Shown here: piece by piece, positions 9,127 through 41,786 of the stretch | How positions within the stretch are numbered: position 1 is the stretch's first letter | How the letters are laid out: the number at the start of each line of letters is the position of its first letter | Source: Elusimicrobium minutum Pei191 | GTDB taxonomy: Bacteria; Elusimicrobiota; Elusimicrobia; Elusimicrobiales; Elusimicrobiaceae | NCBI RefSeq assembly: GCF_000020145.1 | Contig: NC_010644.1 | Span: 806,001 to 870,000, forward strand | Length of the DNA: 64,000 bases | Direction: 5' to 3' | The notes under the pieces: generated by a model | The model's database searches: none | Seen by the model: the letters and a program-made list of their open reading frames with translations, nothing else | What the model was told of the DNA's origin: nothing | Program-made: the position numbers and the translations under genes

Positions 9127-10131
9127 TTATTTTACCTCTCTTTCTCGCACTAATATGCCGTTTACGTAAATTCTTATTTTAGATTCGCTGCCGTAAGGTA
9201 CGTCCATATCTATTTTGGAACCGGGTGTTTTTGTTTCATTAATAATATCTTTTTCGCCGTCTTTATCAATTAACACAACTCTTACGTGACTTGAGTTTTT
9301 ACCTTGCGGAAGTTCATAATGAAGCCTGTATGTTTTTTCCTCGCCTTCAACTTTGCGCCTGCTTACCGTGATATAAACGGTTGAACCTCTTTTAAGTTCA
9401 CTGTCTGCGATGGGTGATTGTTCTGTAATAGTCCCGTTGGGGAAAGCAGATTTTGGGTCGTCCTTAATTTCAACTTCAATATCGTTTGAACTTGCCCAGC
9501 GGGTTAATTCAAAAAGTTTTTTAAGCCTGAATTCGGGTATTAAAATAACGTCTGCGGGGGGAGGCCCGTTTGAAATAATAAGGCTTACTACGGAGCCTTT
9601 TCTCACCATAGAATCAACTTTAGGAGTTTGGTCAATAACGGAGCCTTTTTCATATTCATTTGAATAAGCGTTATCCGTATTTCCGGTCATTAGGCCGTTT
9701 TGGCGCACGTAAAGCTGCGCGTTTCTAAGTGTCATGCCGATAAGGTTTGGCATGGCAAACTCTTCTTCAGTAGCGCTGACCCAAACTCTTATAATACGGC
9801 CTTCTCTTACAACAGAGCCTTGTGAGGGGATTTGTCTTACAACAGAACCGGGCGCCGCATCGGGCGATATTTCCTCACCCGCTTTTTTCATAGCTAAATT
9901 GCTCGCCGCCAAAAGGTCAAGCGCTTCTGATATTTTTTTACTAGTTAAATCCGGCACGGGAACTTCCTTTCTTGTATGAATAAGCGCGTCCAAAGCCCAG
10001 TCTACGGACACATAAATAAGGCCGGCGAAAAAAATAAGCGTTACCGCTATAAAAGCTATTTTCCTGTTAGGCCTTTTGGCTTTATTTTTACTTTTTTTAT
10101 TTGCTACTTCATTAAAAAATTCGTTTGACAT
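9127..10131 (-). CDS. Membrane-anchored PASTA-domain protein without kinase domain
   Basis: A 334-residue bitopic protein. A basic N-terminus (residues 10-24, KKSKNKAKRPNRK) is followed by one membrane segment (about 25-47). The extracytoplasmic part has three PASTA repeats (about 58-125, 126-190, 195-260), each with the P-x-L-x-G/S ... G.V..Q.P..G..V..G..V.V.VS pattern. A C-terminal beta-domain of about 75 residues follows. PASTA repeats usually bind peptidoglycan fragments or lipid II on PknB-type kinases and PBPs; here no kinase or transpeptidase domain is attached. It could be a cell-wall sensor subunit or an envelope scaffold. AGGA precedes the ATG. Confidence 0.85.
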   Translation of the reverse strand: MSNEFFNEVANKKSKNKAKRPNRKIAFIAVTLIFFAGLIYVSVDWALDALIHTRKEVPVPDLTSKKISEALDLLAASNLAMKKAGEEISPDAAPGSVVRQIPSQGSVVREGRIIRVWVSATEEEFAMPNLIGMTLRNAQLYVRQNGLMTGNTDNAYSNEYEKGSVIDQTPKVDSMVRKGSVVSLIISNGPPPADVILIPEFRLKKLFELTRWASSNDIEVEIKDDPKSAFPNGTITEQSPIADSELKRGSTVYITVSRRKVEGEEKTYRLHYELPQGKNSSHVRVVLIDKDGEKDIINETKTPGSKIDMDVPYGSESKIRIYVNGILVREREVK

Positions 10132-10152
10132 TAAAGTTCCTATACAATGGGT

Positions 10153-11154
10153 TTAATAAAAAATTACATCCCCCGGTTTTATTTTATGCCCGTTTGCGAA
10201 CGAGGCGGCAGTCATATCTTTTTTACCTGCGGGCCGCACAATATCTATATATATACAGCTGTCATAACATTTTACTAATATTCTGCCGTCATTTTCAATA
10301 GAAACAACCGAACCCCGGGGCATATTTGGCGGGCATTGTTTGTTCTTTTCGAGCAAAGAGGCTTTTATAATTTGAAGTAAATCCTCTTTACCGTTAATTT
10401 TGGTAATAACTTTAGCGTGCGGACCGCAGGCTAACCCGCGGACGCGGTTAAAAAATGTTTCCGCGCCAAAATTATTAAAATCCAAAATGGTGTCTTCTTT
10501 CTTTATCATAGGAGCGTAAGTGGGAAGAGGCAGTTCTTCCTTAAACATTGAGCCGTCTTCCTGCGGGGTAAAAATGTTTTTTGTCTGTGGTATTTTTACT
10601 ATTTGCCCCAGTCTTATATACTCAATAACGTCTTCTAACAAAATGCCGCCTAAAGAAATAAGCTTTGTAAAAAGGGTTTTTGCGTCCTCAGAGGGAAGAA
10701 TATCCGTTTCTTTATAAGCGAAGACAGGGCCGGTATCCATGCCTTTATCAATCCAAAAAGCGGTTACTCCGGTTTTTGTTTCACCTGCAAAAAGTGTGTG
10801 CTGCACAGGCGCCGCCCCGCGGAATTTGGGAAGTAAAGAAAAATGGATATTAACTATACCCAGTTTGGGTATATCAATAATATGTTGCTTTAAAATTTGC
10901 CCGTAAGCTACGGCTATGCCGTAATCGGCCCCGGCGGCCTTAAGGTCTGCCTCAATATCGGTAATTTTTTCGGGTGAAAGTACTTTTAGTCCCATTTTAA
11001 GGGCCGTTTCTTTAACGGGGCATGGGGTTATAACCATACCGCGCCCTCTGGGCCTGTCAGGCTGGGTAACAACCAAAACAACCTCAGTATAACGGTTTAA
11101 AATTTCTAAATAAGGTACGGCAACTTCCGGTGTGCCGAAAAATATGGTTTTCAT
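10153..11154 (-). CDS. fmt: Methionyl-tRNA formyltransferase
   Basis: Formylates initiator Met-tRNA with 10-formyl-THF. The 333-residue protein has the N-terminal Rossmann formyltransferase domain (FFGTPEVAVPYLE, VVTQPDRPRGRG, the catalytic NIHFSLLPKFRGAAPVQ with Asn and His, GVTAFWIDKGMDTGPV) and the C-terminal OB-like tRNA-binding domain (MIKKEDTILDF... RGLACGP). Length is normal (about 310-320). No Shine-Dalgarno precedes the ATG, but TAAAAT lies six bases before it, so the transcript may be leaderless. It is the first gene of the fmt-PASTA-rpe group. Confidence 0.96.
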   Translation of the reverse strand: MKTIFFGTPEVAVPYLEILNRYTEVVLVVTQPDRPRGRGMVITPCPVKETALKMGLKVLSPEKITDIEADLKAAGADYGIAVAYGQILKQHIIDIPKLGIVNIHFSLLPKFRGAAPVQHTLFAGETKTGVTAFWIDKGMDTGPVFAYKETDILPSEDAKTLFTKLISLGGILLEDVIEYIRLGQIVKIPQTKNIFTPQEDGSMFKEELPLPTYAPMIKKEDTILDFNNFGAETFFNRVRGLACGPHAKVITKINGKEDLLQIIKASLLEKNKQCPPNMPRGSVVSIENDGRILVKCYDSCIYIDIVRPAGKKDMTAASFANGHKIKPGDVIFY

Positions 11155-11160
11155 ATTTAT

Positions 11161-11166
11161 ATTTTA
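11161..11166 (-). promoter_or_regulatory. -10-like hexamer six bases before the fmt start
   Basis: TAAAAT on the minus strand ends six bases before the fmt ATG, and no Shine-Dalgarno is present. It is consistent with a leaderless start. Confidence 0.4.
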
Positions 11167-11182
11167 CCAATTTAGGAGACAA

Positions 11183-11216
11183 AAAAGCCCCGTCTTGTTA
11201 AACAGGGCTTTTTTTG
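11183..11216 (-). terminator. Terminator between the 1486-residue gene and fmt
   Basis: The stem AAAAAGCCC/GGGCTTTTT has A/T runs on both sides. It lies just beyond the stop of the large gene and upstream of fmt. Confidence 0.8.
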
Positions 11217-11225
11217 AAAAATTTA

Positions 11226-14200
11226 TTAATCAAAAGCGGAGAAATCTTTACGCTTACTTACTCCAGAAAATTTATTTTTGCTGTTTAAATCATTAAGATA
11301 CTCATAAAGCCAGTTGTTAAATTGTTTTGTGTTGTTTAAATCAAAAGTATCAAAAGTAATTTTTTTATCTTTATCAAAAACAAGAATTCTGTCTTCTCTT
11401 TTAGGCATTTCAATGCTGAAAGAAAAATTACCTACTACAAAGCTCTTTGTTTCTCTGTCAAAAACAGCTTTAGATATATGGAAATGCCAGTTGTGAAAAT
11501 CTTGAATCTCATGGTTAGAGAAAATAAAAGTGTCTCTATGTATTTTTTGGTCCAAATCATACATAATTGTAACTTTGTCTGATTTAGCATGAAGGATAAC
11601 CGTTGTATATTTGCCTTTGTATAAAGAATCGCGCATAACTTTCTTAACAAATTCAGGGAATTCATTATATTTAAAAAGGCCTACTTTAACCTCATACTCA
11701 AGTGCGGGCGCCTGAAATTTCTTATATTCAAAAAATGTTTGTTTTGGCGTGAATTTAAAAAAAGGCATTAAACCAGACGCAGCTTTTATTTGAAATCCCG
11801 TTGCTTTTGCCAGTTTAAGATGCTCCGCTACTTCCGCCTGAATTTCCGTTTGGTCTTTTATTTTTGTCGTTAATTTTAACTGGCTGTCTTTAAGATATTT
11901 TATGCTTTCATTAAATTGTTTTTGCCATAATTGGTCTTTTTTATTAGCGGAAAAATCATTTAGAAAATATTTAAAGTTTGCAAGCGGTATGCTTTCTTTA
12001 TCCACAAGGTTCAATTGTTGGGTCAGATAGGGCGCAAGGCCTTCTTCCCCTTTAGAAAAATCATAAGGGGTAAAACTAGTATTTTTAATTTCAACAGTGT
12101 TGTTTCTGTTAAGTGCTATAGCTTTTTCAAGCGTGCCGCCTTTAAAGAGCGCGGGATTCACACGTTTTTTAATTTTCAACGTTCTCTTCTCTTCTATTAC
12201 GCCTTCCGCCTCAAGCCTTTTTTTATACTGGTTTAATATATTTAAATCTATATCGGCGGCAGGATACGCTTCCGGGATAAAATCCAATAACGTAAGAACA
12301 AGTTTAGAATTATCATTCCTGTGCAAGCGAAGGCCTTTAAATATATGTCCGTTATAAACGCCGTTTATATTAAGCTCTTTTATCAGATTTTCAATATCTT
12401 GCCATTCATGGATTTTTATGGGATTATCCTTAAAAGATTTGCTTATCGGTAAATCTAAAAGTGTTTCACCCTCTCTGGAAGGAGCAGTAAGTATAACTCC
12501 GGTAATTTCTGTTATGCCGCTTTCTTTAACCGCCAAAGCTTCCGCCTTGTCAAGCTGCGCTTTAATGTTTTCAGGCAGATAAGCGGTGTTAAAAGACATT
12601 ATTTTAGGGAAAACAAAATCAATATTTTTATATTTCCTGAAAACGCCGAAATCTTTTAATCTTGCGATTGTTTTTAAACCCGTTATTGTTTCTTTTGAGG
12701 CAAGCTGGAAATCAACTTTTGTCTGCCCGCCAGAAAGCCCCCACACGTTAGAGTAATTATCGTAAGCGATAACATTAGTAATATCTTTATAAGTATTTTG
12801 GTTTGTATAATCTTTACTTTCAGCTAAAGGATTGTTTTCAACGTTAATAAAAACCATGTTTTTTGGATGTTCCAAAAAGCCGTATCTCATATAATACATT
12901 TCAATGGTTTTAAGGTCTTCTTTATCGTTTGAGGGTTTTTTCTTCAAAGCGGGATTGGCGTTTTCCTGAAAATCGGCTGAAAAATGAACAAGGCGCATAG
13001 TGGCGGGGTCTCTTTTGAGAATAAGGTTATGGAAGGTATCTCCGTTTACATATCCTTTGGAGTTAATAAAAGCATAGTAATTTTCAATACTTTCCCATTC
13101 CCGCCTTGTTATCGGTTTGCCAAGAAGCATCTGCATATTGCGTTCTATTGCTTCTTTAGTATAAATTTTATTTCCTTTAAAATTTATTTGTGGGTCAAAA
13201 CCTCCAGAATTAACGGCTTTTGTTAAAACCGGAATATTACCGTAACGCCAAGCGTTGGAGCCTTTTTTAAATTTAGCGTACTCGGAGTTAATTTGCTGTA
13301 TTAAGGGCTGGGGCAGTTTATTTAAATCGCCTTTATAAACCGAAGGTGTTAATATATCAATATCTTTAAAACTTTCAAAAGATTTATTTTTTTGAAGTTC
13401 GTTTAAAGCTATTAAAGTTTTAATTTCTTTTTCATCGGTAACCTTAAGGTAAAATTTTGTTTCGCCGTTTTCTTTAAGCAGCCATAAGGGCCTTAATTTT
13501 TGGTCATGCTGCGCTATTTCAGTTATTTGGCTAAGATCGGCCTCGGGAGCAAAATTTAACTCGGTTATCGCGTTGCCGCCACCCGCGGAATAAAAAGAAA
13601 GGGTTGTTAATTCTTTATTTTTTGCGGAAGCGTTAGTGTTTTTTTGGTTAAAAACATTTTTTATAGAATTAATAAAAGAGAGAACCGTAGGTTCGGGTTT
13701 AATTTCTTTGGCCTCTTTTTCTGTGCTTTTATTAGGATTTACAGTTATTTCTTCAATATTTCCTTGTTGCCTGCTGTCTAATATTTCATTTAATTCTTTT
13801 TGCTGTTCCTGCGTAAGTTGAAAAAAATTCTCCATCAGTCTTTGGCTTATTAATCCGTTCCTGGCGTTTGCCAGCTCTTCTTCCAAACTCTTTTCTATTA
13901 TAGGCTTTTCTTCTTTATTATTTAAAATCTTTAGGGCCGCCATTATCCCTGCGGAGGTACCGCCAATAATTTTATTGCTTTGGCTTAATATGGGTTTGGC
14001 CGCCTCACTGACGGAGCCAGCCGCCGCTTTGCCTGTATTGCCGCCTGCCATGTTAGCCAAATCTTTTGTTATTTGTAAATTGGGGATAACTTGCTCAACC
14101 GTAGGTCTTAGCCTCGTTTTTGGCTTGGTTAATACCGCCGTATTTGTATTGTTCTTAGCTACGGGAACATCGGGTCTTAACATAGGCTGCCTGGCAGGCC

Positions 14201-37771: not shown

Positions 37772-39565
37772 ATGAAGAAAAAATATTTAGCAGGGTTATC
37801 AATAATTTGTCTTTTATCGGGCAACATTTGGGCGGCGGAATCCATGGAAATGGTTACCTATTATCCCACACCTTACGCTGCTTACTCCAATGTTCAGGTT
37901 AACGACACTAAAGTTAACCCTTCTAACGCTTCAGGCGCTAAAGTTAAACTTAAAACAGCCGATATAGGCGTTTTAAAAGTTAATGAAAATTTAACTTCGG
38001 ATATTAAAAAAGTACAGGCCCAGGCTACAAAAACAGGTAAAAGCACCGCAGCAACGGGTACATTGCAAGTTGAAGGCGAATACCTTAAAATAGCTTCGGG
38101 CGGTATACCGCAGGCGCAGGCTGTAAATATAACAAACTCAGCCACGGGCAATGCTTACGCGGCAAATACAATTATGTTAGGCACGGGAACGGGGGCAAAA
38201 GTATTTCCTTACGCTAAGGCTGCTGTACCGGGCGCTTCCAACATGGTATGGAGGAGTATTACTTATTATATTGACCCTTCGGACCCTTCAAAAGGCAAGG
38301 ACACCAAAACATTTTTAGTTATTGACCAGGGCGCGCCACAAAACGCATGTGAAGATAAATATGAATCGCATAGTAACGCACTATGGTCAAGCTATATGCC
38401 TGATAAACAAAGCTATTCCTTTGACCAGGCTAAAGCGCAAATAGCAGCAATGGATACCTGCCCCGATAAAAACCCTAATACCGCATATAAATGCGACGGG
38501 ACCTTTGAAGGAACTTGTTATGACATAAGGCACCGCATACCCGGTAACGGCTGGGATCCGCAAAATATCTATGGTTCCTGGCAGGAAATACTAATTTGGA
38601 ATGACACATGTCCCGGTAAAAATATTGAACAAGAATTTAACTGTGAGAACAACGCTACCAAATCATATTACATGTGTAACGATGTGACGCAATCTCATTA
38701 TGTAAATCCTTACACGGGAAAAATTTGTGAATATAATGATGGAACCTGCACTGCTGTTAAAAAAGTACGTACTGTCGTATGCAACGAATTTGTTATTGAT
38801 TATGAAAGAACAACCGTAACTTGTTGCGGTTCGGCTTCATGTTCCGCCCCTCAGGTGGATGTAAGCGGAGTATGCAAAACACCGTGCCCGACGCTTTGTC
38901 CGATAGGGCAGATAAAAACTTTATCTAAATATACTGAAGACGGCGAATGCTGCAAAGCGGACCCGTGCGGCGACGGCTTTGTACAATGCCCCGCAACATA
39001 CTCTTTTGATAAAGCAACCGGCAAATGCAACCCGTGTATATCTGTTCCTGGCGGTTTACAATGCAGAGAATGTTTTGATCCCTCCAATTGCCAGGACCTG
39101 TGTTACAACGTTAAAACGGGGGGATTGACAGATTTATCAAAATGTATGGAATGTAATTCAGCCGTAACAACGTGCGACCCTTGTAAGAACAACCCTTCTT
39201 CTACAGAGTGTTCCTGCGTTAACGGAAATTTCAAAGCTTGCGGTTGTTTAACTTTTGGTTCTGATTCAGCGGAATGTAAGTATGGGGGCGTTATACCCTA
39301 TGACAGCCCATACTACAGTGTTCCTACGCAGGATTGGATGCGCTATATTATTAACCAACAAAAAGCTAGACTTACCTGTAAAGAGTATTGCAGTATGGAT
39401 GGCGGATATACGCTTAACTGCCCATGCGGAACAAGAGGAGGATACTATAAATTTACAACAAATCCGGAATCAGGTACAGATGTCAGGCTTCAAGGAGTCT
39501 TAACATGCTGCAAATCTGACCCTTTTCCTATTGGAGGCGGGTTGGGCTGCGCCTCAGGCTATTAA
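37772..39565 (+). CDS. Secreted Cys-rich protein, variable-tail paralog A
   Basis: A 597-residue exported protein. Signal peptide MKKKYLAGLSIICLLSGNIWA (cleavage near A|AES) is followed by a conserved block of about 185 residues (ESMEMVTYYPTPYAAYSN, VKLKTADIGVLKVNENLTSD, VWRSITYYIDPSDPSKGKDTKTF). After about residue 190 the sequence becomes Cys-rich with many C-x2-10-C spacings, unlike any family I recognise. The module VSGVCKTPCPTLCP...EDGECC also appears in paralog B. Bases 37932-38318 are identical to 39997-40383 in paralog B, including silent sites. The Cys-rich tail suggests disulfide-stabilised surface display. AAAGGATA precedes the ATG. Confidence 0.75.
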   Translation: MKKKYLAGLSIICLLSGNIWAAESMEMVTYYPTPYAAYSNVQVNDTKVNPSNASGAKVKLKTADIGVLKVNENLTSDIKKVQAQATKTGKSTAATGTLQVEGEYLKIASGGIPQAQAVNITNSATGNAYAANTIMLGTGTGAKVFPYAKAAVPGASNMVWRSITYYIDPSDPSKGKDTKTFLVIDQGAPQNACEDKYESHSNALWSSYMPDKQSYSFDQAKAQIAAMDTCPDKNPNTAYKCDGTFEGTCYDIRHRIPGNGWDPQNIYGSWQEILIWNDTCPGKNIEQEFNCENNATKSYYMCNDVTQSHYVNPYTGKICEYNDGTCTAVKKVRTVVCNEFVIDYERTTVTCCGSASCSAPQVDVSGVCKTPCPTLCPIGQIKTLSKYTEDGECCKADPCGDGFVQCPATYSFDKATGKCNPCISVPGGLQCRECFDPSNCQDLCYNVKTGGLTDLSKCMECNSAVTTCDPCKNNPSSTECSCVNGNFKACGCLTFGSDSAECKYGGVIPYDSPYYSVPTQDWMRYIINQQKARLTCKEYCSMDGGYTLNCPCGTRGGYYKFTTNPESGTDVRLQGVLTCCKSDPFPIGGGLGCASGY

Positions 39566-39597
39566 ATTAAATATATGGGAATATTTTCCCGGCAATT

Positions 39598-39634
39598 TAA
39601 AAACCTCCGCAAATATTATTTGCGGAGGTTTTTA
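39598..39634 (+). terminator. Terminator of paralog A
   Basis: Stem AAAACCTCCGCAAAT/ATTTGCGGAGGTTTT with a T run. Confidence 0.85.
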
Positions 39635-39836
39635 AATTATTCTCTTCAGTTATTACCACAGTGTTTTTTAACGTTTAAATTAAATACTTTTATATATTAA
39701 TTTATTGACTTATAGCCTATAAATATTATAAAAATTAATATATACATTTTAATATTATCTTTTTAATATTAATATAGCAATAAAGTCTTTTATAAGAATT
39801 AATACTTACAAACTCTGTAAAATAGGACAATAATAT

Positions 39837-41726
39837 ATGAAAAATACCTTTGTTGTACTTGTATCGGCAGTGTTATTTTTGAGCGGCAACATTTGGGCGG
39901 CGGAATCCATGGAAATGGTTACCTATTATCCCACGCCTTACGCGTCTTATTCCAATGTTCAGGTTAACGACACTAAAGTCAATCCTGCGGATGCCGCAGG
40001 CGCTAAAGTTAAACTTAAAACAGCCGATATAGGCGTTTTAAAAGTTAATGAAAATTTAACTTCGGATATTAAAAAAGTACAGGCCCAGGCTACAAAAACA
40101 GGTAAAAGCACCGCAGCAACGGGTACATTGCAAGTTGAAGGCGAATACCTTAAAATAGCTTCGGGCGGTATACCGCAGGCGCAGGCTGTAAATATAACAA
40201 ACTCAGCCACGGGCAATGCTTACGCGGCAAATACAATTATGTTAGGCACGGGAACGGGGGCAAAAGTATTTCCTTACGCTAAGGCTGCTGTACCGGGCGC
40301 TTCCAACATGGTATGGAGGAGTATTACTTATTATATTGACCCTTCGGACCCTTCAAAAGGCAAGGACACCAAAACATTTTTAGCTATTGACCAGGGGGAT
40401 GTCGCACCTGCTACATGTGCTTTTAATAATTACGGCCCGGAAGAATTCCAACTTACAGCTATTTATGTACCAAACGGTTTAGATACCTGCGACAGCAATA
40501 GTAAAGAAAAATTTGTCTGCGGCGCAGAAAAGAAAACATGTGTAGACTATTTTTCGAGATTAAGTGATGATTTTCAACAGCAGGACAATTTATACGGCAA
40601 CTATGGAATAGGCGGTTATGATACATGCAACGGAGACAGCTTAAACAGATATACCTGCACTACTGAAGACTTTAAAAACAATAGAAGCTGCAGCGACTTT
40701 CATACCCCCATTGTACCTCCTATGGAGTACAAAACGGATCAACAATGCAGCGGCAGCTATTTTGTTGGTAACCAGTGCTGTTGGACAAATTCAAGCAAAA
40801 CCGAGGTTACTACCTGCGGATATTCGGCAAGTTGGACTGTTGAATCTAGCAATCTGTCAGATATGGAAAAGATAGCTATTTGTAATAACTCAAGAGGTGT
40901 AACATGCTTTATACCTGCGGAGTGGCATGGTTGCAATAACTCAGGCGGAAACTTTAGCGGAAAAAAAGTTCCGGGTTATGTTCTTGACTGCTCAAAAGTG
41001 CCGGAAGTGCAATTAACAGCTGTTGATTGCAGAGGAAATTTTTATTATAAAAGAGAGGTTGAATGCTGTGCCGACGCAATAAGATGTATAGGCAACCAGG
41101 TTAATATAAACGGCGTATGCAAAACACCGTGTGGTAATTGTCTTAGCGGATACAAAAGGACAAGCGCCCAATACCAAGAAGACGGCGCGTGCTGTGAAAA
41201 AATCAAATACTATAATGTTAGGTTAAACACTTTTTCCACTAACGGACGCTGTGGAATAACGGTTAGCGGCAGCCGTTACGCCACCATATATACAGACGAA
41301 TCAAAAGTTTTAGAATACTACGCGCAAAAAGATGAATGTTTTGATTTCCAAATTAACGGCGCAAACTGTTATGCCAGCTACATTTCAGTATCGCCTCCAA
41401 GCAGCGGCAGCAATATTTCATACGGCCCGCAAAACAATGGCGCGTATTCCGGCTGGGGAAGGGCTTGTGTAGAGAATGCTGACGTTGATATTAATGTTAC
41501 CATGACAAATATTTCAGGCGGAACGGGAAGCAGCTATAGATGGAGGCAGATTAGCCGCGCTTCTGCAGGCGGATCTTGCATGGAATACAGCAGCTGCTAT
41601 GGCATGGGCGGGCAGTTGTCTTACAATAACATAGAAGGCGCGTATTGTTCCAGCTACGGCAGTATGTGTTATGCCAATGACTGCAGTTCTGGCAGGCAGG
41701 ATCAGGTAACGTTCCAGTGTAACTAA
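39837..41726 (+). CDS. Secreted Cys-rich protein, variable-tail paralog B
   Basis: A 629-residue exported protein with signal peptide MKNTFVVLVSAVLFLSGNIWA. It shares with paralog A the same first 185 residues after the signal, with only a few changes (PYASYSN, DAAGA), and a 387-bp perfectly matching block (39997-40383). After that it diverges fully into a different Cys-rich region that includes VNINGVCKTPCGNC...EDGACC, the same small module as in paralog A, then Ser/Gly/Tyr-rich sequence. Ser/Tyr/Gly/Cys-rich C-terminal segments suggest an extracellular location. The two genes each have their own terminator, so each is transcribed separately. No enzymatic motif is seen. Confidence 0.75.
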   Translation: MKNTFVVLVSAVLFLSGNIWAAESMEMVTYYPTPYASYSNVQVNDTKVNPADAAGAKVKLKTADIGVLKVNENLTSDIKKVQAQATKTGKSTAATGTLQVEGEYLKIASGGIPQAQAVNITNSATGNAYAANTIMLGTGTGAKVFPYAKAAVPGASNMVWRSITYYIDPSDPSKGKDTKTFLAIDQGDVAPATCAFNNYGPEEFQLTAIYVPNGLDTCDSNSKEKFVCGAEKKTCVDYFSRLSDDFQQQDNLYGNYGIGGYDTCNGDSLNRYTCTTEDFKNNRSCSDFHTPIVPPMEYKTDQQCSGSYFVGNQCCWTNSSKTEVTTCGYSASWTVESSNLSDMEKIAICNNSRGVTCFIPAEWHGCNNSGGNFSGKKVPGYVLDCSKVPEVQLTAVDCRGNFYYKREVECCADAIRCIGNQVNINGVCKTPCGNCLSGYKRTSAQYQEDGACCEKIKYYNVRLNTFSTNGRCGITVSGSRYATIYTDESKVLEYYAQKDECFDFQINGANCYASYISVSPPSSGSNISYGPQNNGAYSGWGRACVENADVDINVTMTNISGGTGSSYRWRQISRASAGGSCMEYSSCYGMGGQLSYNNIEGAYCSSYGSMCYANDCSSGRQDQVTFQCN

Positions 41727-41755: not shown

Positions 41756-41786
41756 TTAAAGCCCCGCTTTTCAGCGGGGCTTTTTA
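41756..41786. terminator. Bidirectional terminator between paralog B and guaA
   Basis: Stem AAAGCCCCGCT/AGCGGGGCTTT with A/T runs on both sides serves both converging genes. Confidence 0.85.

What the first reader, a model, noticed from the sequence alone, without database searches (positions are those of the whole stretch)
37932..40383. 387 bases identical between two secreted paralogs, flanked by diverged sequence
37932-38318 and 39997-40383 agree at every base I compared, including silent sites, whereas sequence before (signal peptide end to the Ala-rich region) and after (the Cys-rich tails) differs. Such a sharply limited identical block is the expected trace of gene conversion or recent segmental exchange, and the tail exchange would change the exposed part while the N-terminal part stays constant. 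This resembles antigenic-variation systems, but this family is not known to me.
Basis: partly seen in the sequence, partly recalled or inferred. Interest (0 to 1): 0.75.

Follow-up and report, generated by a model that had tools for sequence, protein, structure and literature searches.

The report
Surface proteins: shared heads, different tips

Summary
In detail: 37932-38318 and 39997-40383 are identical over 387/387 bases. The block is part of a larger pattern. The genome (size matches Elusimicrobium minutum) has five such genes at three sites. Their Sec-secreted, about 187-residue "TYYPTPY" heads are 95-99.6% identical in DNA; their Cys-rich tails are about 37-48% identical.

The heads are mosaics of each other, so the cause is repeated gene conversion, not shared constraint. 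The decisive evidence comes from relatives: in two other Elusimicrobiaceae species with orthologous gene pairs, heads group by species and tails group by gene, both with 100% bootstrap. That is concerted evolution of the head.

A second family, six long type IV pilins with Cys-rich tips, shows the same pattern: two dispersed pairs have heads identical over 515 and 530 bp. Some tips occur on both head types. One tail block (about 97-98% identical) sits on diverged heads at non-orthologous sites in two species, so tails move too.

The antigenic-variation reading is not supported: no silent cassettes were found, each gene is complete, and tail orthologues are stable under purifying selection. Best reading: a repertoire of exposed tips on a homogenised carrier. 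Display as adhesins is inferred.

The parts
37772..39565 (+). Gene D843: 597-aa secreted protein, signal peptide + TYYPTPY head + Cys-rich tail
37832..38332 (+). Homogenised head of D843 (codons 21-187); 95-97% DNA identity to the four paralogues
37932..38318 (+). 387-base block identical to 39997-40383
38333..39562 (+). Variable Cys-rich tail of D843 (410 aa)
38816..38887 (+). 72-nt tract in the tail, 98.6% identical to the tail of C681, 163 kb away (second exchange tract; encodes CSAPQVDVSGVCKTPC)
39594..39638 (+). Terminator-like hairpin between the two genes (22-nt perfect arms); suggests separate transcription
39820..39971 (+). Tract identical between E845 and A517 (328 kb away), from about 17 nt before the ATG through the signal peptide to codon 45
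39837..41726 (+). Gene E845: 629-aa secreted protein with the same head and a different Cys-rich tail
39997..40383 (+). Second copy of the 387-base block
40398..41723 (+). Variable Cys-rich tail of E845 (442 aa)
41758..41783 (-). Terminator-like hairpin between E845 and guaA

Best explanation
The two genes belong to a five-member family of Sec-secreted surface proteins with a constant head (about 165 residues after the signal peptide, starting with a TYYPTPY motif) and a gene-specific Cys-rich tail. Shown by sequence: repeated gene conversion (homologous recombination between paralogues at three chromosomal sites) keeps the heads nearly identical within the genome, while the tails are older, differ between genes, and are the part by which genes can be matched between species. 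Shown in relatives: tails can also move as a block onto another head, and some tip domains occur on a second carrier, long type IV pilins. Inferred: the head is the export, anchoring or assembly module; it also exists alone, as genes of 182-210 aa, in four relatives. Inferred: the tail is a disulphide-rich exposed tip, probably an adhesin or ligand binder, so the cell holds a stable repertoire of tips on one standard mount. RecA-type recombination, possibly fed by natural transformation (ComEC and DprA are encoded), is the likely engine. The sharp edges of the block mark where homology ends or conversion tracts end, not a site-specific recombination site.
For: Five heads 95-99.6% identical in DNA with dS 0.02-0.16, tails 37-48%. 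Of 32 variable head sites, 67 of 231 informative pairs are four-gamete incompatible; PHI-like test 0 of 5000 permutations; longest shared runs D/E 15 sites (0 of 20000), C/D 13 and A/C 7 (p 1e-4 each). Quartet from two other species: heads group by species and tails by gene, both 100% bootstrap. In an orthologous pair of congeners head and tail diverge equally (50% and 48.5% aa), so the head is not unusually constrained. The C681 tail has its closest relative in congener genes (27.6% over 290 aa, E about 2e-16), not in its own paralogues over that stretch. Same head/tail contrast within G015, G150, G145, G080, G001 and G002. Pilin-headed family: identical heads of 530 and 515 bp in dispersed pairs, different tips. 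Tips shared between the two carriers. Moved tail block, about 97-98% identical over some 640 bp, at non-orthologous sites. Head-only genes followed by terminator-like hairpins. ComEC and DprA present.
Against: No strain comparison, so no conversion event was watched or dated. Nothing shows the proteins are on the surface, expressed, or bind anything. The head has no match in Pfam, NCBIfam, PHROGs or PDB sequences, and the structure prediction failed (pLDDT 32). Not every head pair in a genome is homogenised (G187 59%, G107 54%, G291 52%, G150a/c 68%).
Confidence: 0.85

Rival explanations
1. Antigenic variation: one or more expressed genes swap tails with others to escape immunity or phages, while the head stays constant.
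For: Constant head with very different exposed tails; a tail block moved between non-orthologous sites in relatives.
Against: All five genes are complete, with own start and signal peptide, on unlike leaders; the tail searches found no headless silent copies. Tail orthologues are stable between species: 56-92% aa, dN/dS about 0.06-0.5. Tail moves seen are between species, not within a clone.
Confidence: 0.1
2. Recent whole-gene duplication followed by fast divergence of the tails, with no gene conversion.
For: Two tandem pairs; near-identical heads.
Against: Tails are about 40% identical in DNA while heads have dS below 0.16, and tail orthologues predate speciation. The heads are mosaic.
Confidence: 0.03
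3. Strong selection on head protein or head DNA keeps heads alike without recombination.
For: dN is low in the head (0-0.024).
Against: Heads differ freely between species (25-32% aa to congeners; 64% DNA between G150 and G145) while identical within a genome. Conserved pilin N-termini in the same genome show only 70-85% DNA identity.
Confidence: 0.02
4. Polymorphic-toxin-like delivery: the constant head exports variable C-terminal effector domains.
For: Constant N-terminus and variable C-terminus, as in Rhs or contact-dependent systems (own knowledge).
Against: No toxin family hit in Pfam or NCBIfam. No immunity-like small gene after the tails: E845 is followed by guaA on the other strand, D843 by E845. 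Tails are 326-499 aa, many-Cys, and share modules with pilins.
Confidence: 0.04

Closest known systems
Modular type IV pilins (e.g. Streptococcus sanguinis PilB, PMC8179133)
   Same: A conserved carrier with a large functional module grafted on for display. The six long pilin-headed proteins of this genome fit this description.
   Different: The TYYPTPY proteins have an ordinary Sec-type signal peptide and no class III pilin motif. Head homogenisation by gene conversion and tips shared between two carrier types were not found described in the papers I could search.
PilV shufflon of IncI plasmids (PMC9045228)
   Same: Constant N-terminal part and variable C-terminal tip that sets binding specificity.
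   Different: No shuffling site or adjacent recombinase was found; tips sit in separate complete genes and are not switched by inversion.
Helicobacter pylori bab outer-membrane adhesin paralogues (PMC4552749, abstract only; details from own knowledge)
   Same: Dispersed paralogous surface genes with shared ends that exchange segments by gene conversion.
   Different: Here one shared end, the head, is homogenised genome-wide and the tails are often not homologous along their length; it occurs in a different phylum and in two carrier families.
pilE/pilS and vlsE antigenic variation (own knowledge)
   Same: Gene conversion between surface-protein genes with a constant N-terminal part.
   Different: No silent cassettes found, no single expression site; tails are stable between species.

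Membership tests
Concerted evolution by gene conversion | Paralogues in a genome more alike than orthologues between species, in the converted part only | tested here: met
   Head tree by species, tail tree by gene, 100% bootstrap each, in relatives
Concerted evolution by gene conversion | Mosaic tracts among paralogues | tested here: met
   PHI-like and run-length permutation tests on the five heads of this genome
Concerted evolution by gene conversion | Events observed between strains or in culture | not testable with these tools
   One genome per species is held
Cassette antigenic variation (pilE/pilS, vls) | Silent, promoterless or headless cassettes | tested here: not met
   All five genes complete; searches with the C681 and E845 tails found only complete long ORFs
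Cassette antigenic variation (pilE/pilS, vls) | Tails change within a clone | not testable with these tools
   No strain series; orthologous tails are conserved between species
Shufflon | Repeated inversion sites and a site-specific recombinase beside the gene | tested here: not met
   No long flanking inverted repeats; no recombinase-like neighbour seen by reading the ORFs, not by a family search
Modular type IV pilin | Class III signal peptide / N_methyl motif | tested here: not met
   D843 and E845 have none in Pfam; the pilin-headed proteins tested do
Polymorphic toxin | Recognisable C-terminal toxin domain and immunity gene | tested here: not met

The most novel reading that the evidence does not exclude
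In Elusimicrobiaceae a common pool of Cys-rich tip modules is exchanged, within and between species and probably through natural transformation, between two unrelated carriers: a Sec-secreted TYYPTPY head and type IV pilins. Gene conversion keeps each carrier uniform within a genome because the heads assemble with one another. This would be a two-carrier, chromosome-wide tip-display system.
Probability: 0.35. Interest if true: 0.75.

Novelty: new variant of a known kind. Interest (0 to 1): 0.62.

Why it matters
It shows concerted evolution of a surface-protein carrier domain in a poorly studied phylum, with an unusually clean test (opposite trees for head and tail). It points to an undescribed display system, and it warns that draft assemblies of these genomes break at the heads, so the families are probably undercounted. 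If the tips are adhesins, the repertoire could explain how these gut bacteria attach to different hosts, particles or partner cells.

Tried and rejected
Structure of the head: AlphaFold2 on a six-sequence alignment gave pLDDT 32 and was not searched further. Pfam, NCBIfam, PHROGs and PDB sequence searches gave no usable match for the TYYPTPY proteins. The genome-contig scan gave only two congeners already in hand. Assembly duplication, recent duplication, selection alone, shufflon, silent cassettes and polymorphic toxins were considered and rejected on the evidence listed. The 2009 genome paper by DOI is not in the library. No paper on gene conversion in these families was found.

Full report
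What was claimed and what is there. The two blocks at 37932-38318 and 39997-40383 are identical at all 387 positions. They lie in two adjacent genes between clpP and guaA (37772-39565, 597 aa; 39837-41726, 629 aa), each with a Sec-type signal peptide. A terminator-like hairpin lies between them. The window lies in a single-contig genome of 1,643,562 bases.

A five-gene family. The same head occurs in three more genes, at 517211, 679103 and 680990. I call the five A517, B679, C681, D843 and E845. Over codons 21-187 the heads are 95-99.6% identical in DNA (dS 0.02-0.16, dN 0-0.024), while the tails align at only 37-48% of bases. The tails share a rough plan, a DTC...C...C module near the start and a Y.R.VTCC motif, with long unrelated stretches. 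Pfam, NCBIfam, PHROGs and PDB sequences show nothing usable.

Mosaic heads. The 32 variable positions in the heads fall into blocks. D843 resembles C681 in the first part and E845 in the rest; A517 matches C681 over a run near the 3' end; A517 and E845 are identical from about 17 bases before the start codon to codon 45. A PHI-like permutation test gave 0 of 5000, and shared runs are significant for D/E (0 of 20000), C/D and A/C (1e-4 each). I wrote these tests myself in the style of PHI and GENECONV. A 72-base tract in the tails of C681 and D843 is 98.6% identical, so exchange is not confined to heads.

Not selection, not recent duplication. In an orthologous pair from two congeners (G001 and G002, named) head and tail have diverged equally, 50% and 48.5% aa. 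The C681 tail is closest to those congener tails (27.6% over 290 aa, E about 2e-16), although the congener genes sit at the site corresponding to A517 (a long pilin upstream, a SpoIID-like gene downstream that is 49-51% identical). Tail type and map position have therefore come apart. In the same genome, 42 other matches to a short pilin gene are only 70-85% identical in DNA.

The decisive test. Two species of another genus (G150, G145) each hold genes a and b. The heads of a and b are 100% identical in G150 and 94.5% in G145, but 64% between the species. The tails pair a with a (73% aa) and b with b (56%), against about 36% between a and b within a species. Heads group by species and tails by gene, each with 100% bootstrap. 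This is concerted evolution of the head. The same contrast is seen in G015 (three genes), in G080 (head ends), in one pair of G001 and in one pair of G002. Some pairs are not homogenised.

Tails also move. In G138 and G090 a block of about 640 bases, from some 45 residues into the tail to roughly 40-50 bases past the stop, is about 97-98% identical. The heads before it are 67-85% identical and the sequence after it is unrelated. Orthologous flanks of G090 and G080 are 87% identical, and G080 and G138 flanks are 95%. Tail dS is 0.12-0.16 against about 1 or more in the adjoining head (44 codons, rough). The simplest reading is that a tail was transferred onto a different head.

A second carrier. 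Searching with tails revealed six long proteins with a type IV pilin start, Cys-rich repeats and distinct ends. Two dispersed pairs share heads identical over 530 and 515 bases. Another genus has a pair 386 kb apart with one difference between bases 18 and 456. The end of one pilin (588143) resembles the C681 tail and, at 60% over 164 aa, a pilin of the other genus. The end of the 514972 pilin resembles the TYYPTPY tails G150a and G145a (34-37%, E 1e-12 to 7e-15). These E-values are for small custom databases.

How it probably works. The head acts as a standard module for export and anchoring or assembly. It occurs as complete head-only genes followed by terminator-like hairpins in four relatives. 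The tails are exposed, disulphide-rich tips. Recombination needs homology, so it homogenises heads and stops at the tails. ComEC and DprA are encoded, and competence genes are reported for Elusimicrobiota (PMC8809381), so imported DNA may feed the exchange. Surface location, adhesion and head assembly are inference. The modular pilin PilB (PMC8179133) and the PilV shufflon (PMC9045228) are the closest functional models.

Distribution. With a head profile, 57 of 295 genomes of the phylum match, nearly all in this family; 31 of 37 genomes of one genus match a second profile. Many matches in the first search cover only the signal peptide and the motif.

Noticed in passing
G107:C10:92306 (L140), G090:C2:213855 (L113), G080:C35:8683 (L142), G291:C138:22068 (L148): Head-only genes of 182-210 aa that stop at the end of the head and are followed by terminator-like hairpins; no Cys-rich tail is seen in any frame directly downstream.
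   Followed up: yes
G150:C3:10000-10526 (L132): A head copy whose reading frame shifts about 190 bases in, with a tail in the other frame: frameshift, pseudogene or sequencing error.
   Followed up: partly
G080:C38, C23, C26; G138:C22, C23; G145:C23, C47; G002:C127, C23: Draft contigs end inside the heads, as expected where near-identical repeats break short-read assembly; the families are probably undercounted.
   Followed up: partly
L024:12002-13753 and 9390-11897: The tails of the two divergent congener genes contain a pilin-like stretch (Pilin_GH, E 3e-4, below the curated cut-off, in the first of them).
   Followed up: partly
L120:1600-3059: A long pilin of G008 scores 27.2 bits against ComP_DUS (cut-off 27.3), the DNA-uptake-sequence receptor family.
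   Followed up: no
window:36214-36726 and genome-wide: Very many short type IV pilin genes: 65 matches to a long-pilin head in this genome, 43 DNA matches (itself included) to the window's pilin.
   Followed up: partly
G145c, G090a, G090b, G080b, G138b, G015a tails: Several otherwise different tails in one genus end in KNGW, a possible second homology arm for tail exchange.
   Followed up: partly
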